DNA from: an uncultured Alphaproteobacteria bacterium
GTDB lineage: Bacteria; Pseudomonadota; Alphaproteobacteria; UBA7879; VGCX01
Length of the DNA: 47,894 bases
Assembly (NCBI GenBank): GCA_913061155.1
Contig: CAJXSI010000007.1
Span: 1-47,894 of the forward strand
Direction of reading: 5' to 3'
Shown: positions 16,626 to 37,505 of the stretch, piece by piece
Layout of the letters: each line of letters begins with the position of its first letter
Position numbering within the stretch: position 1 is the first letter of the stretch
Translations under genes and position numbers: made by a program
Notes under the pieces: generated by a model
What the model saw: the letters and a program-made list of their open reading frames with translations, nothing else
The model's database searches: none
Told to the model about the DNA's origin: nothing

Positions 16626-17318
16626 TTATTTTCTATATATTACGGTATTTCCAAATTGGCCATACCTGCAATGTAGAGTATTCAAAGATTGGCCAGAATC
16701 AAGATTGTAAATAGAATCACAATATTCTTTTGCCATATCCATGTTATGGGTAATTAAAATGACAGCTTTACCTTTGGCTGCCAGGGCCTTTAAATAACGC
16801 ATAATTTTATGCTGATTATCTTGATGAAGGTTTGATAATATTTCATCGCCAAAAATATAATCAGGATTTGATATAAGCGCACGTGCCAGATAAACCATGG
16901 CTTTTTCCCCAGATGATAAAGTATTTATTTCCCGCCCTTTGAATTCAACTAACCCCAAATCAGATAGGATGTTATGGACCTTTAGGTGTTTTTCAGCCTT
17001 TGATTCTTTTGATTTAAGAAGGCCTAATTTAATAATATCTTCAATATATAAATCCCAATGACACAAAGAATTTGATGGAATATAACTTCTTAATTCCGCC
17101 AATCTTTTTACAGAGATATCAAAGACATTTTTATTGTAAAAATAAACTTGTCCGGCAGTTGGTTTTTGAAGGCCTGCAAGAATTCGGATTAAGGTTGTTT
17201 TGCCACTGCCATTTTTCCCTGTCACAGCAATGAATTTTCCAGGCGTGAATTCCCCACTGATATTTTCCAGGACAGAATTATGATCAAATGTCATTTTAAT
17301 ATTTTTAAATTCCAGCAT
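16626..17318 (-). CDS. btuD: vitamin B12 ABC transporter ATP-binding protein (BtuD-type)
   Basis: This is a 230-residue ABC ATPase of the FepC/BtuD group. Walker A is GKNGSGKTT at 34-42, the signature is LSSGE at 134-138 (one change from LSGGQ), Walker B ends FGDE at 156-159, and the switch histidine is H191. It energises the BtuC permease on the cytoplasmic side. The start overlaps the end of btuC by 14 bases, and the order with btuB, btuF and btuC behind a cobalamin riboswitch sets the substrate as a cobamide. Without that context it could equally be an iron-siderophore ATPase. Confidence 0.85.
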   Translation of the reverse strand: MLEFKNIKMTFDHNSVLENISGEFTPGKFIAVTGKNGSGKTTLIRILAGLQKPTAGQVYFYNKNVFDISVKRLAELRSYIPSNSLCHWDLYIEDIIKLGLLKSKESKAEKHLKVHNILSDLGLVEFKGREINTLSSGEKAMVYLARALISNPDYIFGDEILSNLHQDNQHKIMRYLKALAAKGKAVILITHNMDMAKEYCDSIYNLDSGQSLNTLHCRYGQFGNTVIYRK

Positions 17319-18297
17319 ATTTTTTCCTATATTTAAAAATTAAGTGTATGAAAAAGGGGGCCCCGATTAAAGATGTGACAACCCCAAGTTTTAATTCCGT
17401 ATCCCATAGGGGCAACCTTGTGATAATGTCTGAACTTAATACAATGATTCCCCCGCCAAGCATAGAAGGTACCAATAAATTACTGGGTTTTTGTCCAACC
17501 CATAGGCGGAGTATATGCGGTACAACCAATCCAACAAACCCGATAATTCCTGAAACAGCAACTGATGCCCCAATGCATAAGGCCACCCCCACAATAATTT
17601 TCTGGTATGTGTTTTTTACAGAATACCCCAGGCTTTGGGCCGTTTCTTCCCCCAAGGAAAGGGCGTCCAGACCTTGGCGTGTGTGCCACAATATACCCCA
17701 TCCAACTATTATAAAGGGCAGGCATAATATGACGTGATCCATAGTGCGTCCCTCTAATGATCCCAGCAGCCAGAAAATAATTTCCAAAGCAGAGTAGGGG
17801 TTTTTAGATATATTTAATATGACAGAAGTGAGAGAGCTTGCCAGGCTGTTAATGGCAATACCTACCAAAATAACGGTGTATACATTAAAATATTTTTTCA
17901 AAATAATGTAAAGAAAGCCTGCGGTTATGGTGGCACCTGCCATTCCAAATAAAGGAATTAAAAAAGAAAAATGAGCACTGACCCCCAAGCTGATGCATAA
18001 AACAGACCCCAAGGCTGCCCCCGAAGAAATACCAACGATACCGGATTCAGCCAAGGGGTTGCGTAAAAATCCCTGCAAAATTGCCCCTGACAAGCCCAAG
18101 CTTGCGCCGACCAAAAGGGCCAACAAAGTACGGGGCAGACGTATTTCAGACAGAATTATAAAAGCCATTTCATTGGATTTTGAATCGAATAATGAAGGAA
18201 AAATATTAACTTTTCCAATTAAAAGGGATCCAATAAAACAAACAAACATCATGGAAAATAAAATAAAGATGCTTTTTTGATACTTATTTTTTTGCAT
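17305..18297 (-). CDS. btuC: vitamin B12 ABC transporter permease (BtuC-type, FecCD family)
   Basis: This 330-residue FecCD permease has about ten membrane spans. Diagnostic blocks are LPRTLLALLVGASLGLSGAI, NPLAESGIVGISSGAALG and GFVGLVVPHILRLWVG, the last being the coupling region that contacts the ATPase. It forms the inner-membrane channel with BtuD and receives cobamide from BtuF. It overlaps btuF by 14 bases and btuD by 14 bases, so the three are translationally coupled. Confidence 0.88.
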   Translation of the reverse strand: MQKNKYQKSIFILFSMMFVCFIGSLLIGKVNIFPSLFDSKSNEMAFIILSEIRLPRTLLALLVGASLGLSGAILQGFLRNPLAESGIVGISSGAALGSVLCISLGVSAHFSFLIPLFGMAGATITAGFLYIILKKYFNVYTVILVGIAINSLASSLTSVILNISKNPYSALEIIFWLLGSLEGRTMDHVILCLPFIIVGWGILWHTRQGLDALSLGEETAQSLGYSVKNTYQKIIVGVALCIGASVAVSGIIGFVGLVVPHILRLWVGQKPSNLLVPSMLGGGIIVLSSDIITRLPLWDTELKLGVVTSLIGAPFFIHLIFKYRKKYAGI

Positions 18298-19039
18298 TTT
18301 TTAACACCTTTATAAAATCAACAAATGATTGGGGGCAGGCACAGACCGTATGATTTTGTGCAATGGGCATTATGGTTGATTTTGTTAGTTTGTCATAGGC
18401 AGGATGATTCACAAAAGCATAATTTTTTGTGCCAACCCCTGTTGTAAATATATAATCAGGATTTTGGGTGATAATGGATTCAATGCCCATATACCTCCAA
18501 CCTTTGGACGTATTAATATTTCTAAATCCTGCCAAGTTTATGGCTTGATCAACCAATGTTTCTGTCCCTGGGCTGGATCCCCCTATTCCAATATAAAGGG
18601 CAGTTTCAGTTGGGGGGGTGTCTTCTTTAACTGATTGTAATTTCAGTATAATTTCAGATTTACTAAGGGTTATTTTTTTGATTCTATTTGCCCAGAACAG
18701 AAGTTGATTAAGATTTTTTATGGGGGGAATCACAATAACTTTTATCCCTTGTTTTTCAAGCAGATGTTGAACAGATTTATTTATATAATTCGTTGCCAAA
18801 ACCACCGTTACATTTTCTGATAAAAGGGTTTCAATATTTGGTGACTGAATACGATAATTTTTTGCCTTAGAATGAAAATAAGAAACACTTGGGTCTTGGG
18901 ATAAAGGGGTTAAAAAGGCAACCTGGCCAGGTTCTGCAAAAGACAATAACCATTGGTCCGCACACAGATCAAAGCTGGCGATTTTCGCAAGGGAAAAATT
19001 TGATATAATCAGTAAATTAAAAAGTAAGAATCGTGCCAA
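18284..19039 (-). CDS. btuF: periplasmic cobalamin-binding protein (BtuF-type)
   Basis: The 251 residues form a periplasmic binding protein of the BtuF/helical-backbone class. A Sec signal ends at SLA (residue 18), and the mature part starts KIASFDLCADQWLLSF, the usual start of BtuF-like proteins. The LSENVTVVLATNYINK and ITQNPDYIFTTGVG blocks mark the two lobes. The start is TTG 19039: GGAGG stands seven bases before it, and the signal peptide begins directly there. It overlaps btuB by 23 bases. It should deliver cobamide from the TonB-dependent receptor to BtuC. Confidence 0.82.
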   Translation of the reverse strand: MARFLLFNLLIISNFSLAKIASFDLCADQWLLSFAEPGQVAFLTPLSQDPSVSYFHSKAKNYRIQSPNIETLLSENVTVVLATNYINKSVQHLLEKQGIKVIVIPPIKNLNQLLFWANRIKKITLSKSEIILKLQSVKEDTPPTETALYIGIGGSSPGTETLVDQAINLAGFRNINTSKGWRYMGIESIITQNPDYIFTTGVGTKNYAFVNHPAYDKLTKSTIMPIAQNHTVCACPQSFVDFIKVLKNAKK

Positions 19040-20789
19040 TATAAACCTCCTGCCTTGGGGTGCGATACCCTGGGGTAATTATATAACGTTCATCAAATAA
19101 GTTATTAATTTTTAAATATATTTGGGATGTTTTGCTTAGGTGTTGCGCTAAGTTAAAGTCAACTATTGTATAATTTCTTAAGTTATTTGACCCGCTTTTT
19201 CGATTGCCAACCCACTGTACAGATAAATGACTTTCTATTTCTTTTGTTATTTTCCAATTTAAATCACCATTAATTTTATGACGGGGAATGGCTGTGGTAA
19301 CCCCAGGTTCTTGTCTGTTCAAATTTACCAAGGAATACCCCAGGGAAAAACCCAAGGATTCATTCATATTAACTGTCTGCTGAAAATCAATACCATCGAT
19401 ACGGGTATCGTTCACCACATTATGGGTTTTCCATTTTCCATTACTTTGTTGTGTTTGTAACAGCCTATTTTTAAGGACGGTCCTGTAATAACTTAGGTGA
19501 ATTTTATAGTATTTATTTACAGGCGTCGTCACCCCTGTTTCAATCGAATAAGATTTTTCAGGACCCAAGTTATTATTTGATTCATAATAACCATCTTGCT
19601 TGTATAAATCAGTCAAACTGGGGGAACGAAAGCCAGTTCGATAAGATATAAAGAAAGTTGATTGCTTAACCTTATACCTGATTCCAGAAGAGTAAGTTTG
19701 ATGATTTTTATATGTTTTATGATAATCATTTCGAACCCCAATATCTAAGAAAAAATTCTGAAATATCATATGGTTATGGGATAATGCTGTGCCAATAACT
19801 GCCCCATCTTTTTTGAAATTATCTTGTTCTTTTAAAAATTCATTATCTGCTGTTAAAAGAACATTTGTATCTGAATTACGTTCCCCATAGTAAGTAAGTT
19901 TATAACTGCCATAGTATTTTGAATGATTTGAAAATGATGCCCCGGAATATTTTGAATAATCGTTAAATCGTGCCATCAAAAGTTCATGATGATAGTCATA
20001 TTTTTTGGAATCGCTGGTTAATTTTACCCCCATTAAGTTGGTTCGTCTGTATTGATTGTTTTGGGGTTTAGATGGAATATTAACTGTGCTGGCATCGTAC
20101 TTTAAATTCGATTCATTGCCCCGCAAGAACAAAGAAAGATTGGCCATTCGAAAGGCATGATTCAGATGGGCGCCCCCCCCACCATTTGACGTTTTATTAC
20201 GTTCCCCAAATTTACGATTTTTTTCATATTTTGGCAGGCCATCCGTTCTGTTTCCTTCTGCATAAAGGGTATAATTTCCTGAATCATATACACGGTCAAG
20301 ATTGGTATAGCCATTGAATGTGTTAAAGGATCCGCCTTCGATTTGTATTTTGTTTTGGTTCTGGGTTGCTTGATGACTTGTCATATCAACAACGCCACCA
20401 ATGGCATTGGCCCCATATAAAACAGAGGCTGACCCTGGAATTATTTTGACAGAATCAATGGATTTTGATTGCAATATGGATAAATCAAAAAGCCCACTTG
20501 ATGCATTGTTCAAAGGCACGCCATCCAGTAAAATTAAACTGTGTGTGGGGTTTAATCCCCGAAAGCTGACAGTTGCTGCCTGACCGGAAAATCCTGTTCT
20601 TTTAACGTAAACAGACGAATTTCTTTGCAGGACTTGGTCAATAAATTGTTTTTGCCGGGTGTCTGATTTCTTGTATATTTTTTTATTTTCATAGCTGTTG
20701 GGCACACATTTGGGATGCACCACAAGGCTGGCCTGTGATGACAAAGCAAAAGATGCAGCTATGGCTATAGCTATGAAATAAATAGCCAT
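19017..20789 (-). CDS. btuB: TonB-dependent vitamin B12 receptor (BtuB-type)
   Basis: The receptor has 590 residues. ATG 20789 is chosen because AAGGA is six bases upstream, while an ATG at 20795 would overlap that site. After a signal peptide (ending near SSQAS) comes a plug domain with VSFRGLNPTHSLILLDGVPL, SIDSVKIIPGSASVLYGANA and IGGVVD, then a 22-strand-type barrel ending PRQEVYIGTILTF. Only a weak TonB box is visible near the mature N-terminus. The receptor takes up cobamide across the outer membrane using TonB energy; no tonB, exbB or exbD is in the window. The substrate call rests on the riboswitch upstream and on the BtuF/C/D genes. A G8 run in the coding strand (near 20173-20180) encodes part of a poly-glycine loop. 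Confidence 0.88.
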   Translation of the reverse strand: MAIYFIAIAIAASFALSSQASLVVHPKCVPNSYENKKIYKKSDTRQKQFIDQVLQRNSSVYVKRTGFSGQAATVSFRGLNPTHSLILLDGVPLNNASSGLFDLSILQSKSIDSVKIIPGSASVLYGANAIGGVVDMTSHQATQNQNKIQIEGGSFNTFNGYTNLDRVYDSGNYTLYAEGNRTDGLPKYEKNRKFGERNKTSNGGGGAHLNHAFRMANLSLFLRGNESNLKYDASTVNIPSKPQNNQYRRTNLMGVKLTSDSKKYDYHHELLMARFNDYSKYSGASFSNHSKYYGSYKLTYYGERNSDTNVLLTADNEFLKEQDNFKKDGAVIGTALSHNHMIFQNFFLDIGVRNDYHKTYKNHQTYSSGIRYKVKQSTFFISYRTGFRSPSLTDLYKQDGYYESNNNLGPEKSYSIETGVTTPVNKYYKIHLSYYRTVLKNRLLQTQQSNGKWKTHNVVNDTRIDGIDFQQTVNMNESLGFSLGYSLVNLNRQEPGVTTAIPRHKINGDLNWKITKEIESHLSVQWVGNRKSGSNNLRNYTIVDFNLAQHLSKTSQIYLKINNLFDERYIITPGYRTPRQEVYIGTILTF

Positions 20790-20848
20790 TATCATTCCTT
20801 AAAATTTGTAAATCCTTTATGTTTCCTTGTCCCCCTCCGGAACAAAAG

Positions 20849-27700: not shown

Positions 27701-27957
27701 TGTTTGACGTTGGGTTTTATGAATTATTGGTTGTGGCCTTAATTGCCTTGCTGGTCTTTGGCCCAAAAGAACTGGCAACCGTTATGTTTAAGATGGGGAA
27801 ATTCACAAAAAAGGTGAAAAACTTTCAAGAAACTTTTAAGGCCGATAACCAAAAAATATTTGATAAACTGGAACTGGAAGATTTCGAAGAAACCGCCAAA
27901 TCAAAAGCAGCCAAAAAACAACCTTTAACGGATTTGTCAAATCATGGCAAAAAATAA
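27700..27957 (+). CDS. tatB: Tat translocase subunit TatB
   Basis: This is an 85-residue protein starting [20 protein letters not shown] with the GPKELATVM bend that separates TatB from TatA. An amphipathic helix and a short charged tail follow. It forms the substrate-receptor complex with TatC in the inner membrane. The start overlaps the tatA stop (TAATG) and the end overlaps tatC by 14 bases. It is shorter than the E. coli protein, as is usual in reduced genomes. Confidence 0.92.
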   Translation: MFDVGFYELLVVALIALLVFGPKELATVMFKMGKFTKKVKNFQETFKADNQKIFDKLELEDFEETAKSKAAKKQPLTDLSNHGKK

Positions 27958-28690
27958 ACCCCAACCCATTCTTGGGCATTTGTCAGAATTAAAAACCCGC
28001 CTTATAAAAACCGCCCTTTTATTTTTAATTGTCTTTGGGCTTTGTTATTTGATTTCGGATCACCTATTTTTATGGCTGGCAGACCCCTTGAACAAAAGCC
28101 TTAAGGATATAGGAATTGAAAACCCAACCCTTGTTTATACGCATTTGGCCGAAGCCTTTTTGACTTATATCAAAGTATCTTTCTTTGCGGCTTTAATGAT
28201 TACTTTTCCTTTTTTGGAAGTTCAAGCATGGTTGTTTTTAAAACCTGGGTTACACAAGACGGAACAAAAATTTACCTTTATGATTTTTGTTATGGCGCCA
28301 GTATTTTTTATACTGGGGGCTGTGTTGGCCTATTATTACGTCTTTCCTTTAACGTGGAAATTCTTGGTGGGGTTCAGTATTCCCCAATCGCAAAACATTT
28401 CTATTCACCTGATGACAAAAATGGAAGATTATTTGGACCTGGCGACAAAGTTAATGTTTGCCTTTGGATTATGTTTTCAGTTGCCCCTTATTCTTATTAT
28501 TTTGGCCAAGTTGGGGGTGGTTTCTGTTGATGCTTTGATCCAAAGCCGTAAATTTGTCGTTGTGGGGATTTTTATTATTGCCGCATTTTTAACGCCTCCA
28601 GACGTGATCAGCCAAATTGCCCTGGCCATTCCCTTGCTTTTGTTGTATGAATTGTCCATTATTATTATTAAAAAACTGACTAAGAAATAG
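27944..28690 (+). CDS. tatC: Tat translocase subunit TatC
   Basis: This 248-residue, six-span protein recognises twin-arginine signal peptides. The conserved HLSELKTRL at the N-terminus, the first periplasmic loop with EAFLTYIKVSFF, and the LTPPDVISQIALAIPLLLLYE block in spans 5 and 6 are all present. It is coupled to tatB by overlap, and serS follows after nine bases. Confidence 0.97.
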   Translation: MAKNKPQPILGHLSELKTRLIKTALLFLIVFGLCYLISDHLFLWLADPLNKSLKDIGIENPTLVYTHLAEAFLTYIKVSFFAALMITFPFLEVQAWLFLKPGLHKTEQKFTFMIFVMAPVFFILGAVLAYYYVFPLTWKFLVGFSIPQSQNISIHLMTKMEDYLDLATKLMFAFGLCFQLPLILIILAKLGVVSVDALIQSRKFVVVGIFIIAAFLTPPDVISQIALAIPLLLLYELSIIIIKKLTKK

Positions 28691-28699
28691 AGGATACCT

Positions 28700-29992
28700 A
28701 TGCACGATATTCGTTGGATTCGCGAAAACCCAAAAGACTTTGATGCGGCCTTAAAGCGCAGGGGTATCGATGCGCACTCTGCTGTTATTCTTAAGTTAGA
28801 CGAAGATTATCGAAACTGTCTTACCCAAATTCAAGAATTGCAGCAAGAACGTAATGATGTTGCAAAGCAAATGGGCCAGTTGAAAAGGGAAGGCAAAGAT
28901 GCATCAGATTTAGTGGCAAAAGGGGCGAAGATAAAAGAATCGTTGCCAGAAATTGAAACGGAATCAAATAATTTAAAAGATAAATTAAAGGGGTTTTTGG
29001 CGACCCTTCCCAATATATTGGCAGATGACGTGCCTGATGGACAAGAAGAATCGGATAACCAAGAAATCAGAACACATCTGGATCCAACACAGTTTTCTTT
29101 TGATCCCAAAACCCATTTTGAAATCGGGGAAACAATGGGATTGATGGATTTTGAAACGGCAGCCAAAGTTGCCGGCAGTCGCTTTGTTATTTTAAAGGGG
29201 GCCTTAACGCGTTTAGAGCGTGCCTTGGCCCAGTTTATGCTTGATACGCACACAGAAAAATTTGGCTATACTGAAATTTCAACACCGTTACTTGTGAATG
29301 ATAATTCAATGTTTGGGACAACCCAGTTACCAAAATTTTCAGAGGATTCTTTTAAGACAACAGATGGATATTGGTTGATTCCAACCGCCGAAGTTTCAGT
29401 GACAAATACGGCGGCCGGGGAAATAGTTCCTGAAGATAAACTTCCCTTAAGATATGTTTGTCATTCCCCGTGTTTTAGGTCCGAGGCCGGATCGGCAGGG
29501 CGTGATACCCGTGGCATGTTACGCCAACATCAGTTTTACAAAGTTGAATTGGTTAGTATGACACTTCCTGAAAAATCAGCTGAGGAACATGAACGCATGA
29601 CAGGGGCTGCAGAAGAAATTCTAAAGCAACTTAAAATACCTTTCAGAACCATGAAGTTGTGTGCCGGCGATACCGGATTTGGGGCCCAAAGAACCTATGA
29701 CTTAGAAGCATGGTTACCAGGCCAAGATGCCTACCGTGAAATTTCCAGTTGTTCCGTTTGTGGGGATTTTCAGGCCCGTCGTATGAACGCCCGATTCAGA
29801 CCCCATCAACCAGAAAAAGCAAAGCCCCAATTTATTCATACATTGAATGGATCTGGGTTGGCTGTGGGCCGAACGTTAATTGCCGTTATGGAAAATTATC
29901 AAACAGCAGAAGGCGGGGTTGTCATCCCTGATGTATTGCGTCACTATATGAATAATGCAAGGGAAATTACAAAAGATGGAAAACTCCAATAA
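28700..29992 (+). CDS. serS: serine-tRNA ligase
   Basis: The 430 residues have the N-terminal antiparallel coiled coil (about 30-100) that reads the long variable arm of tRNA(Ser), and a class II catalytic domain. Motif 2 is FRSEAGSAGRDTRGMLRQHQ, and motif 3 is LNGSGLAVGRTLIAVMEN. It charges tRNA(Ser) and tRNA(Sec). GAGG precedes the ATG. It lies directly after tatC, a standard alphaproteobacterial order, and its end overlaps surE by 17 bases. Confidence 0.98.
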   Translation: MHDIRWIRENPKDFDAALKRRGIDAHSAVILKLDEDYRNCLTQIQELQQERNDVAKQMGQLKREGKDASDLVAKGAKIKESLPEIETESNNLKDKLKGFLATLPNILADDVPDGQEESDNQEIRTHLDPTQFSFDPKTHFEIGETMGLMDFETAAKVAGSRFVILKGALTRLERALAQFMLDTHTEKFGYTEISTPLLVNDNSMFGTTQLPKFSEDSFKTTDGYWLIPTAEVSVTNTAAGEIVPEDKLPLRYVCHSPCFRSEAGSAGRDTRGMLRQHQFYKVELVSMTLPEKSAEEHERMTGAAEEILKQLKIPFRTMKLCAGDTGFGAQRTYDLEAWLPGQDAYREISSCSVCGDFQARRMNARFRPHQPEKAKPQFIHTLNGSGLAVGRTLIAVMENYQTAEGGVVIPDVLRHYMNNAREITKDGKLQ

Positions 29993-30746
29993 TTTAAGAA
30001 TTCTTATTTCAAATGATGATGGTATTCATGCGCCAGGGATTAAAATTCTGGAAAAAATCGCCCGTGAATTAACGGATGATGTGTGGATCGTTGCGCCGGA
30101 TCAAGAACAAAGTGGGGCGGCCCATTCTTTAACATTGAATCATCCTTTGCGGGCAAAAAAACTTAAAGACAAAAAATTTGCTGTCTATGGCACCCCAACT
30201 GATTGTGTTTTGATGGCCGTGGAAGAATTAATGGAAGGCAAAAAACCGGATCTTGTTTTATCCGGAATTAACAACGGGGCAAACCTTGGGGATGATGTGA
30301 CTTATTCTGGAACAGTTGCCGCCGCGATTGAGGCCACTTTAATGAAAATTCCAGCGATTGCGTTAAGCCTTAATACTAAAATATCAGAACCCAATAAATG
30401 GCAAACAGCCGAAGATCATGCGCCAGCCCTGATTAAAAAATTAATTGATATAGGCTGGCCCAAAGACGTTCTTATTAATATAAATTTTCCTGATATTGAA
30501 TCTAAAAAAATTAAGGGTGTTAAGGTTTGTAAGATGGGATTCCGCCTGCCTTATAAATCAATCATTAAATCTTTGGATCCCCGTGGGAACCCTTATTATT
30601 GGTTTGGGGCCATTCCAGATCACTTGGAAAATGAAAAAGATACAGATTTATCTGTTATCAATGAAAATATGATTTCAATTACGCCGTTGCATTTAGATAT
30701 GACGCATACAAAAACATTAAGCCAATTGCAAAAGCATTTTGATTAA
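29976..30746 (+). CDS. surE: 5'/3'-nucleotidase SurE
   Basis: This 256-residue survival protein SurE is a divalent-metal nucleotidase and exopolyphosphatase. The metal-binding N-terminus LRILISNDDGIHAPGI, the WIVAPDQEQSGAAHS block and SGINNGANLGDDVTYSGTVA are all intact. ATG 29976 is chosen because it fits the family start; an ATG at 29955 would sit deep inside serS. It overlaps serS, and its stop shares a base with the next gene's start. Confidence 0.95.
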   Translation: MENSNNLRILISNDDGIHAPGIKILEKIARELTDDVWIVAPDQEQSGAAHSLTLNHPLRAKKLKDKKFAVYGTPTDCVLMAVEELMEGKKPDLVLSGINNGANLGDDVTYSGTVAAAIEATLMKIPAIALSLNTKISEPNKWQTAEDHAPALIKKLIDIGWPKDVLININFPDIESKKIKGVKVCKMGFRLPYKSIIKSLDPRGNPYYWFGAIPDHLENEKDTDLSVINENMISITPLHLDMTHTKTLSQLQKHFD

Positions 30747-31753
30747 TGATTCGGGTTTTTACATCCATTATTTTATTGTTGTTGTGTTCTTGCGAACAAG
30801 GCCCGCCCAAAGCCCCTTACGCTGTTGCAAATATTACCCTTGACCAGGTTGTTTTACCAACTTTAATCATTGCCACAAAAAACGGCATAAGGGAAATTAA
30901 GCCAGCCGTTTGGAATGAAAAATCCCGCACCTTTACCAAAGGGACAGACCTAAATATCACAGCAGAAAAAGATGATACGGTTTATAAGGTCTCTAGAAAA
31001 TATCACGTGCCCATTAAAACAATTATCGAAACAAACCATTTGATGGCACCATTTGGATTAAAGGAAAACCAAAAACTTTCTTTGGGAAGTCCCAAAGTTC
31101 ACATTGTGAAAAAGGGTGAAACAGTAAATTCAATTGCAGATTTACATAAAACAGATGCCCCGGCGCTGGTGAAATTAAATAAATTAAAATATCCATATGT
31201 TATCAAAGTTGGCCAGCAATTGTTGCTGCCAAGTAAAGTTTTATACTTGCCCCCTAAAGACAGCTTTATTACAGTAAAGCAAATTCCCAAGCAAAAAGGT
31301 CAAAAATTCTCTAAGAAAAAGACAGTCAAAAAATCCAAAGAAAAAGTTGTTTACGATAAACCAAACAGACGGACATCATCCATTTTCTTGCGTCCTGTTA
31401 CGGGGAAAATATTATCATATTTTGGCCCTAAGAAAGGGGGATTGCAAAATGATGGTATTAATATTTCTGCAAAAGCAGGATCCCCAGTCCAGTCAGCTGA
31501 AAATGGGGTGGTCGTTTATGTGGGGGATGAAATTGAAAGCTTTGGTAATATGATTTTGGTAAAACATAGTGATGGATGGATGTCAGCCTATGGGCACCTG
31601 GATGAAATAACTATTAAAAAAGGCCAGCATATTAAACGCGGGCAAAAAATAGGAACAGTTGGAACAACAGGGTATGTCAAAAATCCGCAACTACACTTTG
31701 AATTGCGCAAAGGCCGACGCCCGGTTAATCCAGGTCAATATATAACAAGGTAA
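30746..31753 (+). CDS. NlpD-type lipoprotein with LysM domains and degenerate M23 domain
   Basis: The protein has 335 residues. The signal peptide ends at a lipobox-like LCSC (acylated C16), then come two LysM-like segments (about 70-110 and 115-155, the second VHIVKKGETVNSIADLH) and a C-terminal LytM/M23 domain from about 215. The first zinc-ligand motif HxxxD is replaced by NDGINI, so it should not cut peptidoglycan. Like NlpD or EnvC, it more likely activates a cell-wall amidase during division. The SurE-NlpD neighbour order is shared by many Proteobacteria. Its start overlaps the surE stop (TAATG). Confidence 0.88.
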   Translation: MIRVFTSIILLLLCSCEQGPPKAPYAVANITLDQVVLPTLIIATKNGIREIKPAVWNEKSRTFTKGTDLNITAEKDDTVYKVSRKYHVPIKTIIETNHLMAPFGLKENQKLSLGSPKVHIVKKGETVNSIADLHKTDAPALVKLNKLKYPYVIKVGQQLLLPSKVLYLPPKDSFITVKQIPKQKGQKFSKKKTVKKSKEKVVYDKPNRRTSSIFLRPVTGKILSYFGPKKGGLQNDGINISAKAGSPVQSAENGVVVYVGDEIESFGNMILVKHSDGWMSAYGHLDEITIKKGQHIKRGQKIGTVGTTGYVKNPQLHFELRKGRRPVNPGQYITR

Positions 31754-31757
31754 TTAA

Positions 31758-32318
31758 ATGGATAAAAATATTTTTAACTTTATTAAGACCCCACAAGAAG
31801 ACACGCATTCTGTCAAAAGAAATACGAGATTTTACCTTTCCATATTTAAAAATAATAAGATAGGGGAATGGTTTCCCAGTTGGAACTGGGCGTGTTTTTT
31901 TGCTTCTTTCTTTGGTTTTGATATTGTATGGCTTTTTTATCGAAGAATGTATTTAAATGGTATTTTAATTGGTTTGGTGGGGGTGACCTTTTTTGAATTT
32001 ATTCGCATAAAATTGGGCCTATTTTTAGCTGCGGGTTTGGGCCTTGTTATTGGAAAAATTGTTATGTGGATTTTGAAAATTACCTGGGTTTTTACCTTTA
32101 CAGTCTATGGAAATTCTTTGTATGGAAAACATATAAGTCAACAGGTTGAAAAAGGGAAAACACAAAGTGGAACAGATCCATATACGTCGATGATGATGAT
32201 TATTTTGTTGTGTATAAACTTGGCTTATATCATCATGAAGATGATGCAAGCTGGCATAACTGACGTAGCCAGTATCCAGGATTTAATGAACCAATTAATG
32301 GAAAAAAATGCAAGATAA
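31758..32318 (+). CDS. DUF2628-type membrane protein
   Basis: This 186-residue protein has three or four hydrophobic segments. The block WNWACFFASFFGFDIVWLFY, then RRMYLNGILIG, is the hallmark of the DUF2628 family (unknown function, often next to cell-envelope genes). It begins five bases after the NlpD-type gene and overlaps nhaA by 11 bases. Confidence 0.7.
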   Translation: MDKNIFNFIKTPQEDTHSVKRNTRFYLSIFKNNKIGEWFPSWNWACFFASFFGFDIVWLFYRRMYLNGILIGLVGVTFFEFIRIKLGLFLAAGLGLVIGKIVMWILKITWVFTFTVYGNSLYGKHISQQVEKGKTQSGTDPYTSMMMIILLCINLAYIIMKMMQAGITDVASIQDLMNQLMEKNAR

Positions 32319-33477
32319 GTTAAAGAAATTTTTTCAAAACGAATCAAAAGAAGGTATTATTTTACTGTTGGCGGCCATTGCTGCCATAATTTCAAAAAAC
32401 TCTGTTTTTTCAGATATGTATAATACCTTTCTTGAAACCCATATCCAAGTTGCAGTTGGGGATGTTCATATTAACAAGCCATCTTTATTATGGATCAATG
32501 ATGGGTTAATGGCCGTTTTCTTTTTATTGGTTGGACTGGAAATAAAACGTGAATTTCTGCAAGGGGAACTTTCAAATATATCTAAAGCCAGCCTTCCTTT
32601 CATGGCTGCAATTGGGGGGATGATTTTCCCCGCCTTGGTTTATTTATACTTTAATATTGATAGTCCTAAAGACATCAAAGGATGGGCCATCCCAGCGGCA
32701 ACGGATATTGCCTTTGCCCTTGGTGTGCTTGCCTTGTTTGGGAAACGTATCCCCAATTCTTTAAAAGTTTTTTTACTGGCTTTGGCGATTATTGATGACC
32801 TTGGGGTCATTATTATTATTGCTTTCTTTTATACAGCAAATCTATCAGTTCTTTCTTTGTTGTGGGCCGCCCTGGGTATGTCGATACTTATTATTTTCAA
32901 CTCTTTAAATGTACGGCGCATTGCCCCCTATGTCCTGGTGGGCATTTTTATATGGGTCTGTGTTTTAAAGTCAGGCATTCATGCAACCTTGGCCGGGGTT
33001 TTGGTTGCCCTGGCGATTCCTTTAAGAACAAAAGGGGATAAAATATCGCCGGCTTTGAAATTGGAAAAAAATTTATATCCGTGGGTATCGCTTTTGATAC
33101 TTCCGTTATTTGCTTATGGTAACGCCGGGGTTTCTTTAGGTGATATAAAATTAACAAGCTTCACTCACGAAGTTTCTTTGGGAATTGCCCTGGGATTATT
33201 TTTAGGAAAACAATTTGGCGTTATGTTATTTGCTTGGTTAAGTATCAAACTTAAAATTGCTGAAATGCCAAGAAACGTTACATGGTTGCAAGTTTATGGA
33301 ACAGCTTTGCTGACAGGGATTGGCTTTACCATGAGTTTGTTTATAGGAACCCTGGCATTAGAAGGAACAGACTATGCTGTTTTAATTCGCTTGGGCGTGA
33401 TTTCGGGATCCTTACTTTCAGGCCTTGCAGGATATTTTGTTTTAAAATATAGTATGGATAAAATTAAAAGGACATAA
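32308..33477 (+). CDS. nhaA: sodium/proton antiporter NhaA
   Basis: At 389 residues this is a full-length NhaA. The twin-aspartate sodium site ALAIIDDLGVIIIIAFFY and the block AIPAATDIAFALG are present, along with SGIHATLAGVLVALAIP and GFTMSLFI near the end. It exchanges two protons for one sodium and so keeps internal pH and sodium in check. It overlaps DUF2628 and stands two bases before a sodium-dependent bicarbonate transporter, so it may supply that carrier's sodium gradient. Confidence 0.96.
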   Translation: MQDKLKKFFQNESKEGIILLLAAIAAIISKNSVFSDMYNTFLETHIQVAVGDVHINKPSLLWINDGLMAVFFLLVGLEIKREFLQGELSNISKASLPFMAAIGGMIFPALVYLYFNIDSPKDIKGWAIPAATDIAFALGVLALFGKRIPNSLKVFLLALAIIDDLGVIIIIAFFYTANLSVLSLLWAALGMSILIIFNSLNVRRIAPYVLVGIFIWVCVLKSGIHATLAGVLVALAIPLRTKGDKISPALKLEKNLYPWVSLLILPLFAYGNAGVSLGDIKLTSFTHEVSLGIALGLFLGKQFGVMLFAWLSIKLKIAEMPRNVTWLQVYGTALLTGIGFTMSLFIGTLALEGTDYAVLIRLGVISGSLLSGLAGYFVLKYSMDKIKRT

Positions 33478-33479
33478 GT

Positions 33480-34463
33480 ATGACCAATATTTTTTCTTTA
33501 GCCAGTTCAAATTTCTTATCCCCCGCCGTCCTAAGTTTTTTCTTAGGGGTGATTGCAGGTGGAACGAAATCAGACCTTCATATCCCTGAACAAATTGCCA
33601 AAGCCATTTCCCTATACCTAATGTTTGCAATCGGATTTAATGGGGGGGTTGGACTTCGCAGTTATGATATTGGTTCAGAAATTATTCTGGCCCTTGGGGT
33701 CGCCATGTGTCTAAGCTTTTTTGTACCATTTTTGGCAAATGGCATTTTGGGTAAAATGTGTCGACATTTAAATATAAATACCCGGGCGGCCATTGCCGCA
33801 CATTATGGTTCCATCAGTATTGTTACCTTTGCAACCGCCATGCAGTTTTTAAAAGTTCAAGAAATTGGATATGAAAAATATATTGTGGCGATGGCGGCAT
33901 TAATGGAAACCCCTGCCATTGTTGCGGGCATATATTTAATTAAAAAAGGGAACAGTAAATCTATTGATGATCAATCATCAAAACGGTTGCTACAGGAAGT
34001 CTTTTTCAATGGGTCAATAATATTATTATTGGGTGGTTTTATTATTGGTTTTATTTCTGATATAGCAGGGGTGAACGCAGTCGCCCCTTTCTTTTCAAAA
34101 CCGATTAAGGCCATTTTATGTTTTTTCTTATTGGATATGGGCATCTTGGTGGCCAGACGCTTTGTGGGCTTTAAAAAATTGGGCTGGTCTTTGGTTTTGT
34201 TCGGGTTTTACATGCCACTTATCGGTGGGGTAATTGGCGCCGTCACTGGAAATTTAATTGGCCTATCCATTGGGGGAACAGCGTTGCTTGCAACTTTGGT
34301 GGCAAGTGCCTCTTATATCGCGGTACCGGCAGCAATGCGTATTGCCGTCCCCGAAGTTAACCCTTCTATTTATATTTCTATGTCTTTAGGGATAACTTTT
34401 CCGTTCAATATTATTATTGGTATACCAACGTACTTAATTATTTCACAATATCTGGGGGGATAG
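33480..34463 (+). CDS. sbtA: sodium-dependent bicarbonate transporter (SbtA family)
   Basis: This 327-residue SbtA-type permease has about ten spans and two inverted halves. Family blocks seen are SPAVLSFFLGVIAGGTKSDL at the N-terminus, AIGFNGGVGLR, AAIAAHYGSISIVTFATA, LMETPAIVAGIYL and ASASYIAVPAAMRIAVPE. SbtA imports bicarbonate with sodium in cyanobacteria and is found in some proteobacteria. It is followed with no gap by an SbtB-like PII protein. In a heterotroph it could feed carboxylases; the substrate is inferred from the family. Confidence 0.88.
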   Translation: MTNIFSLASSNFLSPAVLSFFLGVIAGGTKSDLHIPEQIAKAISLYLMFAIGFNGGVGLRSYDIGSEIILALGVAMCLSFFVPFLANGILGKMCRHLNINTRAAIAAHYGSISIVTFATAMQFLKVQEIGYEKYIVAMAALMETPAIVAGIYLIKKGNSKSIDDQSSKRLLQEVFFNGSIILLLGGFIIGFISDIAGVNAVAPFFSKPIKAILCFFLLDMGILVARRFVGFKKLGWSLVLFGFYMPLIGGVIGAVTGNLIGLSIGGTALLATLVASASYIAVPAAMRIAVPEVNPSIYISMSLGITFPFNIIIGIPTYLIISQYLGG

Positions 34464-34766
34464 ATGAAAAATATAAAAAAGAAGAAATTAGAAATATTTA
34501 TCGAATCTACGTATGAAAGAAACTTACTGAAAATATTCAAAAAAAATGATGTATTAACTTATGCGTGTTTACCAACAGAGCATTATCACAGTAAACAAGT
34601 TAGTAGTATTGAAGACGATATTATCGATGTTTTTGAATTTTCAATGTGTATTGTGATTGTTAATATTGATCAATATAAAAAAATTGTTGATGAAGTTGGT
34701 AAAGTTTTATCCCGGGCAAATGGAATCATGTACTGTCAAGATATTGAAGAAATTGAAAACGATTGA
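34464..34766 (+). CDS. sbtB: SbtB-like PII signalling protein
   Basis: The 100 residues follow the beta-alpha-beta ferredoxin-like pattern of PII proteins (KLEIFIESTYERNLLKIF, FEFSMCIVIVNIDQYKK, GIMYCQDIEEIE) and start on the base after the SbtA stop. In cyanobacteria SbtB binds adenine nucleotides and blocks SbtA from the inside. Here the long T-loop and the C-terminal CGPEGC redox loop are short or absent, so the regulation may be simpler. The identification depends mostly on position and fold pattern. Confidence 0.7.
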   Translation: MKNIKKKKLEIFIESTYERNLLKIFKKNDVLTYACLPTEHYHSKQVSSIEDDIIDVFEFSMCIVIVNIDQYKKIVDEVGKVLSRANGIMYCQDIEEIEND

Positions 34767-35205
34767 AATTTTTTCAGATATTTTTATTCATATCGGCAGT
34801 TCTTATTTTATAGCTGCCATTTTCATAATGGGGCTGTTTTTTAAAAACCATAGGGGGTTGTGTGTGACCGCAATTCTATCTTTGGGGTTCAGCTTTTTCC
34901 TTAACCCAATTTTAAAAAACATTTGGCAACTTCCTTTGAAATTTTCTGCCCATACCTATGCTTTTCCAAGTGGTCATAGCCATGCAATTGCAGCCTTTTT
35001 CTCAGTTTTATTTTTTGGTGTGTCCAGGAATTATAAAATAGGTATTGGCGTAATTTTAATATGTTACGCTTGGGCAATAAACAGGCATGGTTACCATGAA
35101 TGGTTTGAAATCATAGGCGGGCAATATTTTGGCATTGTACAGGGATTAATTTTTTATCTAAGTTACAAAGCAATCCAAAAATATCTGCCCTATAAAAATA
35201 TATAA
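34720..35205 (+). CDS. PAP2-family membrane phosphatase, divergent
   Basis: This hydrophobic protein of about 160 residues contains the central PAP2 motif AFPSGHSHAIAAF. It also has a third block NRHGYHEWFEIIGG in place of SRxxxxxHxxxD, and a first block around LKNIWQLPLKF. It probably dephosphorylates a lipid such as undecaprenyl pyrophosphate or phosphatidylglycerophosphate on the outer face of the inner membrane. The ATG at 34720 lies within sbtB and has no good ribosome site; TTG codons at 34744 or 34753 are alternatives. Confidence 0.7.
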   Translation: MESCTVKILKKLKTIEIFSDIFIHIGSSYFIAAIFIMGLFFKNHRGLCVTAILSLGFSFFLNPILKNIWQLPLKFSAHTYAFPSGHSHAIAAFFSVLFFGVSRNYKIGIGVILICYAWAINRHGYHEWFEIIGGQYFGIVQGLIFYLSYKAIQKYLPYKNI

Positions 35206-35258: not shown

Positions 35259-37505
35259 TTAACTCATATTCGCAGATAAAATCGCCAGGTTTACCAGATC
35301 GTTTGCTGTGGCGGTCATGTTGGCAATTTGCACAGGTTTTTCAAATCCCATTAACAAAGGACCAATTAAGGTTGCCTCCCCCATACATTGCAATAGTTTA
35401 TAAGATATATTTGCAGAGTGCAGGTCAGGCATAATAAGAATATTGGCAGGTCCTGTAAGCCGTGAAAATGGATAGAATTCTTTATTCTTTTCGTTTAAGG
35501 CCACATCAACTGACATTTCACCTTCATATTCAAAATCAACTTCTTTCTGATCTAAAGCCTTAACAGCCGCGCGTATATGATCGGCATGTTCACGCAAGGG
35601 GTTGCCAAAGTTTGAATAGGAAACAAAGGCAACGCGGGGTGTGTGACCCATGTCAAGTGCTTTCTTGGCACACTGGCAGGCCATCCTTGCCATCATTTCA
35701 GGGGTAAGTTTGTCATTGACGGTTGTATCGGCAATAAAGACAGTCCTATTCTTTAACACCAAAATAGACAGGCCAAAAATACAATCGCCTGGCTTTTGGT
35801 TGATAACTTTTGAAACGTTATCTAAGGCGCCAGAATAATTTCGTGTTAAACCTGTTACCATTGTATCGGCATGCCCCATGGCAACCATCATGGCCCCAAA
35901 AAAGTTCCGATCACGATTAATCAGGCGTTTACAATCACGGTATAAATAACCTTGCCTTTGAAGCCTTTCATGTAACAGGTTTGTATATTCTTCGTTATAT
36001 TCAGAAAGTTTGGCATTATGGATTTCAACTTTTTCAGGAAGGGAGAAACCACTTTCCTTAACTTTCTTTTTAATGATGTCTTCTTGGCCAATCAAAATGG
36101 CTGTACCCAGGCCATCCCCAGCAAAAGAAATGGCGGCCCGAATCATTTTATCTTCCTCGCCTTCAGCGAAGACAACTTTTTTATCCAATTTTTTTAATTC
36201 TTGGCAGACAGAAATTAGGTTTGAATAGGTAATATCACGTCTGGCACGTAGTTCTTGTTCATAGGCTTTTAAGTCCCGTTCTTTATCAAGGGCAACGCCT
36301 GATTTAATGGCTGCCTTTGCAACAGCAACAGGAATTGCTGAAATCAGACGGGGGTCCAACGGAACGGGAATAATATATTCAGGCCCATAAGATTTTTCAC
36401 GCCCACCATAAGCCGCGGTAACTTCCTCATGAACGCCTTCGCGGGCCAACTTTGCCATCGCTTGAGCAGCCGCAATTTTCATTTCATCATTAATTTCTGT
36501 TGCCTTGATATCCAAAGCCCCCCGAAAAATATAAGGAAAACAAACAGCATTATTAACTTGGTTTGGATAATCAGATCGCCCCGTGCCAATAATGGCATCA
36601 CTGCGAACTTCCCTCACATCATCTGGCGTTATTTCTGGGTTTGGATTGGCCATTCCAAAAATGATAGGTTTTTTATTCATGGATTTCACCATGGATTTTG
36701 TGAAGGCCCCTTTGACGGAAAGACCGATTAAAACGTCGGCACCTTTTGCGGCTTCTTCAAGGGTTCGCAATTCTGTTTCAACGGCAAATTTTTGTTTCCA
36801 TTCATTCAGGTTGGATCGCCTCTTATGAATAACACCTTTACTGTCCGCCATGATAAGATTTTGGGACTTAACCCCCATTTTTAATAAAAGATTTCCACAG
36901 GCAATGGCGGCAGCACCCGCCCCATTTATAACAATTTTTGCAGTTCCAAATTCGCGCTCTGTTAGGTGCAAAGCATTAATCATACCGGCCACAAGAACAA
37001 TCGCAGTACCATGTTGGTCATCATGCATGACAGGGATGTCTAATTCTTTTTTAAGACGTTCTTCAATAACGAAACAATCCGGTGCCTTGATATCTTCAAG
37101 ATTAATCCCTCCAAAAGTTGGGGCAATCAGTTTAATGGCATTAACAAATTCATCAACGTTTTCTGTATCAACCTCGATATCAAACCCATCAATGTCAGCA
37201 AACTTTTTGAAGAAAACGGCCTTCCCTTCCATCACGGGTTTGGAAGCCAACGCCCCAAGATTTCCAAGTCCAAGAACAGCCGTCCCATTGGATACAACAG
37301 CAACCAAATTTCCCTTTGCCGTATATTTATACGCATCTTGTGGGTTTTCTTTAATCTTAATACAGGGAATCGCAACACCAGGGGAATAGGCCAACGATAG
37401 ATCCTTCTGGGTTACCAGGGATTTTGTGGCATTAATTTCCAGTTTTCCTGGCTTGCCTTTAATGTGAAAGTCTAAGGCTTCTTGATCGAAATTTTGTTTT
37501 GTCAT
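35259..37505 (-). CDS. maeB: NADP-dependent malic enzyme with phosphotransacetylase-like domain
   Basis: The protein has 748 residues. The N-terminal malic enzyme (about 1-420) shows YSPGVAIPC, VVSNGTAVLGLGN, DIKAPDCFVIE, HDDQHGTAIV and the nucleotide fold KIVINGAGAAAIA. A C-terminal domain of about 320 residues belongs to the phosphotransacetylase family and regulates MaeB in response to acetyl-CoA rather than catalysing. The enzyme oxidatively decarboxylates malate to pyruvate and yields NADPH. It starts at ATG 37505, stands alone, and converges on the PAP2 gene. Confidence 0.96.
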   Translation of the reverse strand: MTKQNFDQEALDFHIKGKPGKLEINATKSLVTQKDLSLAYSPGVAIPCIKIKENPQDAYKYTAKGNLVAVVSNGTAVLGLGNLGALASKPVMEGKAVFFKKFADIDGFDIEVDTENVDEFVNAIKLIAPTFGGINLEDIKAPDCFVIEERLKKELDIPVMHDDQHGTAIVLVAGMINALHLTEREFGTAKIVINGAGAAAIACGNLLLKMGVKSQNLIMADSKGVIHKRRSNLNEWKQKFAVETELRTLEEAAKGADVLIGLSVKGAFTKSMVKSMNKKPIIFGMANPNPEITPDDVREVRSDAIIGTGRSDYPNQVNNAVCFPYIFRGALDIKATEINDEMKIAAAQAMAKLAREGVHEEVTAAYGGREKSYGPEYIIPVPLDPRLISAIPVAVAKAAIKSGVALDKERDLKAYEQELRARRDITYSNLISVCQELKKLDKKVVFAEGEEDKMIRAAISFAGDGLGTAILIGQEDIIKKKVKESGFSLPEKVEIHNAKLSEYNEEYTNLLHERLQRQGYLYRDCKRLINRDRNFFGAMMVAMGHADTMVTGLTRNYSGALDNVSKVINQKPGDCIFGLSILVLKNRTVFIADTTVNDKLTPEMMARMACQCAKKALDMGHTPRVAFVSYSNFGNPLREHADHIRAAVKALDQKEVDFEYEGEMSVDVALNEKNKEFYPFSRLTGPANILIMPDLHSANISYKLLQCMGEATLIGPLLMGFEKPVQIANMTATANDLVNLAILSANMS

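What the first reader, a model, noticed from the sequence alone, without database searches (positions are those of the whole stretch)
32308..34766. NhaA-SbtA-SbtB cassette in an AT-rich alphaproteobacterium
A sodium/proton antiporter gene is followed by a sodium-dependent bicarbonate transporter and its PII-like regulator, with two bases or none between genes. SbtA/SbtB are best known from cyanobacterial carbon concentration, and no carbon-fixation gene is here. NhaA could recycle the sodium that drives bicarbonate import, feeding carboxylases or pH control.
Basis: partly seen in the sequence, partly recalled or inferred. Interest (0 to 1): 0.5.

Follow-up and report, generated by a model that had tools for sequence, protein, structure and literature searches.

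The report
Probable bicarbonate-import genes with sodium antiporter
A small-genome bacterium carries side by side the genes for a sodium pump, a probable sodium-driven bicarbonate importer and a worn-down version of the importer's regulator; similar gene neighbourhoods recur in related bacteria, but the importer belongs to a branch whose cargo has not been proven.

Summary
Confirmed: nhaA (32308-33477), sbtA (33480-34463) and sbtB (34464-34766) lie 2 and 0 bases apart, inside a longer packed run. The transporter is not cyanobacterial SbtA1. It belongs to a second class (66 of 73 alphaproteobacterial loci), is 28% identical to SbtA1 and lacks two of four tested bicarbonate-site residues; a presumed relative, Labrenzia SbtA-like, failed an uptake test (PMC4275256). 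Neighbourhood still argues for bicarbonate: of 143 distinct class II loci, 30 have a beta-carbonic anhydrase nearby and 11 have NhaA. In the class-wide set NhaA is near in 9 of 73 loci, 0.19 expected. This genome shows no alpha-, beta- or gamma-carbonic anhydrase, RuBisCO or PEP carboxylase; the only bicarbonate user found is acetyl-CoA carboxylase. SbtB keeps the PII fold but lost 9 of 12 conserved positions, the most of 114. Small genomes have mostly lost SbtB: 4 of 24 loci keep it, against 38 of 42. New variant of a known kind; moderate interest.

The parts
31758..32318 (+). 186-aa ORF, membrane-like by eye, overlaps nhaA start by 11 bases; no Pfam or NCBIfam match at E 0.1
   Evidence: codon-usage score best in this frame of six
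32308..33477 (+). nhaA, Na+/H+ antiporter NhaA, 389 aa; D133, D163, D164 present (importance of these residues recalled)
   Evidence: PF06965 2.5e-144; TIGR00773; E. coli NhaA structures E ~1e-119; positions
33480..34463 (+). sbtA class II, Na+-dependent bicarbonate transporter family (PF05982), 327 aa; S113 and S278 kept, A139, Y279, A281 in place of Y140, D325, S327 of Synechocystis SbtA
   Evidence: model pLDDT 91.3, SbtA Z 33.4 against 21.2 for the best other family
34464..34766 (+). sbtB-like PII-family protein, 100 aa; glycines of the T-loop region and C-terminal R..F lost
   Evidence: codon-usage score best in this frame of six
34720..35205 (+). PAP2-superfamily-like ORF, overlaps sbtB by 47 bases; role in the unit unknown
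   Evidence: PF01569 E 1.2e-5, 25.5 bits, under the 27.2 cut-off (scanned from 34717); start read; codon-usage score 0.07 is below two antisense frames, so weaker support than the others

Best explanation
The run encodes a Na+-coupled inorganic-carbon uptake unit. Class II SbtA (an elevator-type 5+5 symporter) brings HCO3- in with Na+, and NhaA pumps that Na+ out again in exchange for protons, keeping the gradient. In this genome, where no alpha-, beta- or gamma-carbonic anhydrase was found, the imported HCO3- would feed acetyl-CoA carboxylase (AccBC). The SbtB-like protein folds like SbtB/CPII and would have been the adenylate-responsive plug of SbtA, but it has lost the family's glycine motif, so it is now either decaying or works without nucleotide. 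Shown: gene identities, spacing, predicted folds, recurrent linkage, enzymes not found. Inferred: HCO3- as cargo, NhaA as Na+ recycler, AccBC as consumer, loss of nucleotide sensing, transcription as one unit.
For: SbtA family and fold. G111, S114, S322 and S324 equivalents kept. Beta-carbonic anhydrase near 30 of 143 distinct class II sbtA, 27 within 500 bp and 25 of these on the same strand (one member of the cluster was scanned with Pfam); in the class-wide set 5 of 73 loci, one of them class I, against 0.167 expected. A class II sbtA lies one gene from form I RuBisCO in Cereibacter azotoformans. The partner's profile is closest to CPII of Thiomonas, solved with bicarbonate and ADP. NhaA linkage in 9 of 73 loci, 6 families, in differing orientations; the order nhaA-sbtA-sbtB recurs in L070 and L072. 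No match for alpha-CA (43), beta-CA (10), PEPC (82) or RuBisCO (83); hexapeptide proteins in three ORFs only, none gamma-CA-like; AccB-AccC present. A 2026 review reports a second SbtA family (SbtA2) active on HCO3- and paired with SbtB2 (PMC13249358, passages).
Against: Y140 and S327, whose Ala mutants cut transport to about 10-40% (PMC8352866), are Ala here and changed in all 66 class II loci. Labrenzia SbtA-like gave no HCO3- uptake, and only cyanobacterial SbtA complemented a CA-deficient E. coli (PMC4275256); the four Labrenzia/Roseibium genomes checked each have one Sbt_1 gene, class II. Class II may not be SbtA2: the protein called SbtA2 in Leptolyngbya boryana is said to keep the substrate-site residues (PMC10536570, passages). 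SbtA presence does not go with absence of beta-CA across the class (42/72 against 207/313 have it, p=0.22), and G003 of the same order has neither SbtA nor beta-CA. RuBisCO was found in none of the 153 loci. The two other SbtA loci of the order lack NhaA and SbtB beside them. No close relative was available to test selection on sbtB.
Confidence: 0.5

Rival explanations
1. Class II SbtA is a Na+ symporter for another small anion (for example a short carboxylate). The pocket residues that hold HCO3- in SbtA1 were replaced because the cargo differs; NhaA still recycles the Na+.
For: Class-wide replacement of Y140, D325 and S327; three genomes carry both classes, so they are unlikely to be redundant (G096, G153, G331); the Labrenzia protein was negative; the Nostoc/Microcystis SbtA-like protein (24% identity) is thought not to replace SbtA (PMC11890772, passages).
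Against: Carbonic anhydrase and, once, RuBisCO near class II genes; partner profile closest to bicarbonate-binding CPII; a negative heterologous assay can mean poor expression or a missing ion. Recurring clusters of AMP-binding and short-chain dehydrogenase genes are few (7 and 9 of 153 loci, one representative each scanned).
Confidence: 0.25
2. The unit mainly serves pH and Na+ homeostasis: HCO3- import buffers the cytoplasm while NhaA exports Na+ and admits protons; no carboxylase needs the supply.
For: NhaA linkage without carbonic anhydrase (no locus of the 153 has both nearby); in Synechocystis nhaS1 shares the NdhR regulon with sbtA/B and bicA (PMC13249358, passages).
Against: Does not explain the carbonic anhydrase and RuBisCO neighbours of the same class; nothing about the organism's pH is known.
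Confidence: 0.15
3. The three genes are merely parked in a housekeeping operon (tatC-serS-surE-M23 peptidase run, names recalled from the sequences); order reflects genome compaction, not shared function.
For: Genes are packed from 27944 to 35205 with tiny gaps or overlaps; the two other SbtA loci of the same order have neither NhaA nor SbtB beside them (L034, L036).
Against: sbtA-sbtB pairing in 42 of 66 class II loci of the class-wide set and NhaA linkage 9 observed against 0.185 expected.
Confidence: 0.1

Closest known systems
Cyanobacterial SbtA1-SbtB (Synechocystis slr1512-slr1513)
   Same: Same Pfam family and fold (Z 33.4 and 30.9 to 8zor and 7cye); G111, S114, S322, S324 equivalents kept; PII-like partner encoded next door
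   Different: 28% identity over 287 aligned positions; Y140, D325, S327 replaced; SbtB lacks the glycine motif and the CGPxGC R-loop; no RuBisCO found in the genome
SbtA2-SbtB2 of cyanobacteria (PMC13249358, PMC9477826, PMC10536570; passages read)
   Same: A second SbtA family with its own PII-like partner
   Different: Whether alphaproteobacterial class II is that family was not testable: no confirmed SbtA2 sequence could be fetched, and PMC10536570 says an SbtA2 keeps the substrate-site residues
CPII of Thiomonas intermedia (PDB 5D4L-P, 5DRK, 5DS7)
   Same: Best structure hit of the class II SbtB profile (2.4e-19) and among the top folds for the window protein
   Different: CPII keeps GYT...GKG; the window protein has TYACLPTEHYHSK; CPII is carboxysome-associated (title in the reference list of PMC6458275; the paper itself is not held)
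Labrenzia alexandrii SbtA-like (PMC4275256, passages read)
   Same: Presumed class II alphaproteobacterial relative
   Different: Tested without HCO3- uptake in E. coli; its own sequence was not seen here

Membership tests
NhaA Na+/H+ antiporter | Full-length family match and transport-site aspartates | tested here: met
   D133, D163, D164 present; their role is recalled
PF05982 Na+-dependent bicarbonate transporter superfamily | Family model over cut-off across the whole length, 5+5 fold | tested here: met
   367.6 bits, cut-off 27, positions 1-306 of 308; fold by predicted model
Cyanobacterial SbtA1 | Bicarbonate-site residues S114, Y140, S324, S327 | tested here: not met
   S113 and S278 kept, A139 and A281 instead of Tyr and Ser
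Cyanobacterial SbtA1 | High identity to characterised SbtA1 (64-75% in the six class I sequences compared) | tested here: not met
   28% over 287 aligned positions
SbtA2 | Groups with cyanobacterial SbtA2; Cl- dependent HCO3- uptake | not testable with these tools
   The two cyanobacterial sequences that came up (L198, L199) are class I
SbtB / CPII (PII-like) | PII ferredoxin-like fold, gene next to sbtA | tested here: met
   Mean pLDDT 86.4, 90-97 in blocks outside residues 31-60; top Foldseek rows SbtB and CPII; gap 0
SbtB / CPII (PII-like) | Conserved glycines and Thr in and before the T-loop region and C-terminal R..F | tested here: not met
   9 of 12 positions conserved in at least 80% are lost; median loss 1 in 114 sequences
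SbtB / CPII (PII-like) | Adenine nucleotide binding | not testable with these tools
   Needs a binding assay
SbtB of cyanobacteria with R-loop | C-terminal CGPxGC | tested here: not met
   Protein ends QDIEEIEND

The most novel reading that the evidence does not exclude
In a carbonic-anhydrase-less, shrunken alphaproteobacterial genome, a class II SbtA with a rebuilt pocket is the cell's only inorganic-carbon gate for fatty-acid synthesis, driven by a co-transcribed NhaA, and its PII partner has been rewired into a nucleotide-independent subunit, one stage in a repeated loss of SbtB control in small-genome lineages.
Probability: 0.2. Interest if true: 0.65.

Novelty: new variant of a known kind. 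Interest (0 to 1): 0.42.

Why it matters
The prevalent SbtA type of the alphaproteobacteria sampled here carries the family name 'sodium-dependent bicarbonate transport', yet it is a separate class with changed pocket residues and one negative uptake test on a presumed member. The linked NhaA, carbonic anhydrase and CPII-like genes make its cargo directly testable, and the repeated absence of SbtB in small genomes is a natural experiment on what that regulator is for.

Tried and rejected
Rejected: that SbtA replaces carbonic anhydrase as a rule. Across 385 genomes presence of one does not predict absence of the beta type. Of SbtA-bearing genomes, 15 of 24 small ones and 15 of 48 larger ones lack it, but the matching figures for SbtA-less genomes by size were not available, and G003 has neither.

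Rejected: a first SbtB count that included a false hit in L069. The first profile had been trained on all small ORFs behind sbtA, some of them chance ORFs. A profile rebuilt from 67 sequences chosen by score and length with that first profile, window left out, does not find L069; those numbers are used.

Tried without result: Pfam and NCBIfam on the 186-aa upstream ORF; phmmer of SbtB alone against PDB, which gave only a designed barrel; promoter and terminator scans, whose promoter-like count (33) is near the shuffled mean of 30.1 and whose terminator-like count (17, mean 10.9, sd 3.3) was not followed up; RuBisCO in the 153 loci, none found; two papers on SbtB and CPII, not held; searches for Na+-dependent bicarbonate transport in endosymbionts and for DUF897 found no paper.

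Rows dropped: of 72 class-draw genomes with Sbt_1, G024, G040, G072 and G132 were not fetched (fragmentary hits or contig ends); four genomes gave two loci each; G005 (L034) came, making 73. The 2.0-Mb size line was drawn after seeing the sizes. In one search the extraction of seven of eight extra loci (L189-L193, L195, L196) came back empty; the class of the four Labrenzia/Roseibium genes was read from L114, L117, L123 and L124 instead. The neighbour cluster of 33 loci was set aside: its representative is a radical-SAM, lipoyl-synthase-like protein, and many members are opposite-strand ORFs overlapping sbtA or sbtB.
Full report
What is there. Six-frame reading confirms three co-directional genes at the stated place, with 2 and 0 bases between them. 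NhaA is full length (PF06965 2.5e-144; E. coli NhaA structures at about 1e-119). SbtA matches PF05982 over positions 1-306 of 308. The third gene scores only 15.9 bits with Pfam P-II, under the cut-off. It is genuine all the same: a profile of 67 related SbtB proteins that excluded it gives 46.7 bits, its codon-usage score is best in its own frame, and its model has a confident PII core with a poorly predicted T-loop region, whose nearest solved folds are cyanobacterial SbtB and Thiomonas CPII. For scale, the same profile gives two cyanobacterial SbtB-like genes about 45 bits, so the window protein is as far from its alphaproteobacterial kin as those are. The unit is wider than the finding: a 186-aa ORF overlaps nhaA by 11 bases and a PAP2-like ORF overlaps sbtB by 47, within a packed co-directional run from 27944 (tatC-like; upstream gene names recalled from their sequences) to 35205.

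The transporter class. I compared the window SbtA with other alphaproteobacterial members: 72 of 385 genomes have a match to the family, and 73 loci were fetched (which were left out is told under Tried and rejected). They fall into two classes with no intermediates at positions 140, 325 and 327. Seven loci carry the cyanobacterial residues (Tyr140, Asp325, Ser327); three of the seven were measured and are 64-65% identical to Synechocystis SbtA. Sixty-six, the window included, have no Tyr140, have Tyr at 325 and Ala or Val at 327; those measured are 25-31% identical. Of four residues proposed to hold HCO3-, each shown by Ala mutation to matter (PMC8352866, whole text), the window keeps two. 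Three genomes have both classes. The predicted fold is that of SbtA (Z 33.4 to 8zor; best other family Z 21.2).

What it carries. Against bicarbonate: one alphaproteobacterial SbtA-like protein, from Labrenzia alexandrii, gave no uptake in E. coli (PMC4275256, passages). Its sequence was not seen here, but the four Labrenzia/Roseibium genomes checked each have a single Sbt_1 gene, class II. For bicarbonate: neighbours of 153 loci were clustered. After SbtA and SbtB the most frequent clear cluster is beta-carbonic anhydrase (representative PF00484 2.1e-44), in 32 loci. Counted on distinct class II sequences it is near 30 of 143, 27 within 500 bp and 25 of those on the same strand. The 80 named loci are biased to the query; in the class-wide set alone it is 5 of 73, one of them class I, against 0.167 expected. 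In Cereibacter azotoformans a class II gene sits one LysR gene away from form I RuBisCO, but RuBisCO was found in none of the 153 loci. A 2026 review tells of a second cyanobacterial family, SbtA2, that does move HCO3- but needs chloride, with its own SbtB2 (PMC13249358, passages). Whether class II is that family could not be tested; a protein called SbtA2 in Leptolyngbya boryana is said to keep the substrate-site residues (PMC10536570, passages), which speaks against it.

The antiporter link. NhaA lies within the fetched stretch in 9 of 73 loci of the class-wide set, from six families, against 0.185 expected if placed at random (one copy per genome and a 12-kb target assumed). Two more appear among the 80 named loci (L143, L169). 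Orientation varies: upstream same strand (window, L070, L072, L143), upstream opposite strand (L040, L056, L085), downstream opposite strand (L041, L045), downstream same strand (L087, L169). NhaA is also commoner in SbtA-bearing genomes (39/72 against 114/313, p=0.007), though relatedness was not corrected for. In cyanobacteria Na+/H+ antiporters are held to maintain the gradient for SbtA and BicA (PMC13249358, passages).

The demand. The window's genome (1.26 Mb, 100% complete by the tool's estimate) has no match to beta- or alpha-carbonic anhydrase. Its hexapeptide-repeat matches lie in three ORFs of 339, 267 and 452 aa; the first is LpxD-like, the third GlmU-like, and the second, whose sequence I did not read, lies about 0.6 kb from the first (names recalled), so none looks like gamma-carbonic anhydrase. 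There is no match to PEP carboxylase or RuBisCO. Of two ATP-grasp hits one is AccC behind AccB and the other a Ddl-like ligase (names recalled from sequence). Acetyl-CoA carboxylase is therefore the only HCO3- consumer seen; other consumers and rarer carbonic anhydrases were not searched. This does not make SbtA a general stand-in for carbonic anhydrase (G003).

The regulator. Class II sbtA has an sbtB-like gene beside it in 42 of 66 loci of the class-wide set and in 72 of 80 named loci. Its absence follows genome size: 4 of 24 loci in genomes of 2.0 Mb or less keep it, 38 of 42 in larger ones (p=1.9e-9, loci not corrected for relatedness, size line drawn afterwards). The window is one of the four, and its protein is the most eroded of 114: 9 of 12 positions conserved in at least 80% are lost (median 1), including the three glycines of the T-loop region and the C-terminal Arg and Phe. 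Measured against its SbtA it is the third-lowest outlier (z -2.75; L180 and L038 are lower). The gene is also AT-richer (26% GC) than nhaA (38%) and sbtA (40%). Decay under way, or a partner that no longer reads nucleotides, fit equally; without a close relative selection cannot be measured.

Verdict. A known kind of module, but not the textbook SbtA-SbtB: class II transporter, eroded regulator, and an antiporter link that recurs. Bicarbonate is the best guess for the cargo (about 0.5 to 0.6). No statement of the NhaA-SbtA-SbtB link in alphaproteobacteria came up in my searches (mostly listings and passages); they cover open-licence papers only.

Noticed in passing
L096, L099, L100, L101, L102, L103: In six of the seven alphaproteobacterial class I loci the SbtB-like ORF lies downstream on the opposite strand (convergent), whereas in class II it is co-directional.
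   Followed up: no
L034:6946-7815; also L084, L086, L108, L111, L122: A DUF6671 (PF20376, scanned in L034) protein follows class II sbtA where sbtB is missing, directly (3-17 bases) in three loci and about 0.5 kb away in three; five of the six also have an opposite-strand LysR gene about 100 bases upstream.
   Followed up: partly
L198 (Acaryochloris plasmid pMB01): A class I sbtA with an SbtB-like gene is followed by cation:proton antiporter genes including a subunit C, another antiporter-transporter neighbourhood.
   Followed up: partly
L116 (Candidatus Bandiella numerosa, Rickettsiales): A member of the Midichloriaceae carries class II sbtA without a detected SbtB in the 6.4-kb contig held.
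   Followed up: no
window 16626-20795, - strand: TonB-type receptor, binding protein, permease and ATPase ORFs in one run, resembling a vitamin B12 or iron uptake unit (read, names recalled).
   Followed up: no
window 35259-37505, - strand: Malic enzyme fused to a phosphotransacetylase domain (PF00390, PF03949, PF01515), convergent with the PAP2-like ORF.
   Followed up: no
L083 and L094, both from genome G138: One genome holds two class II sbtA genes, one with and one without a clear SbtB-like gene.
   Followed up: no
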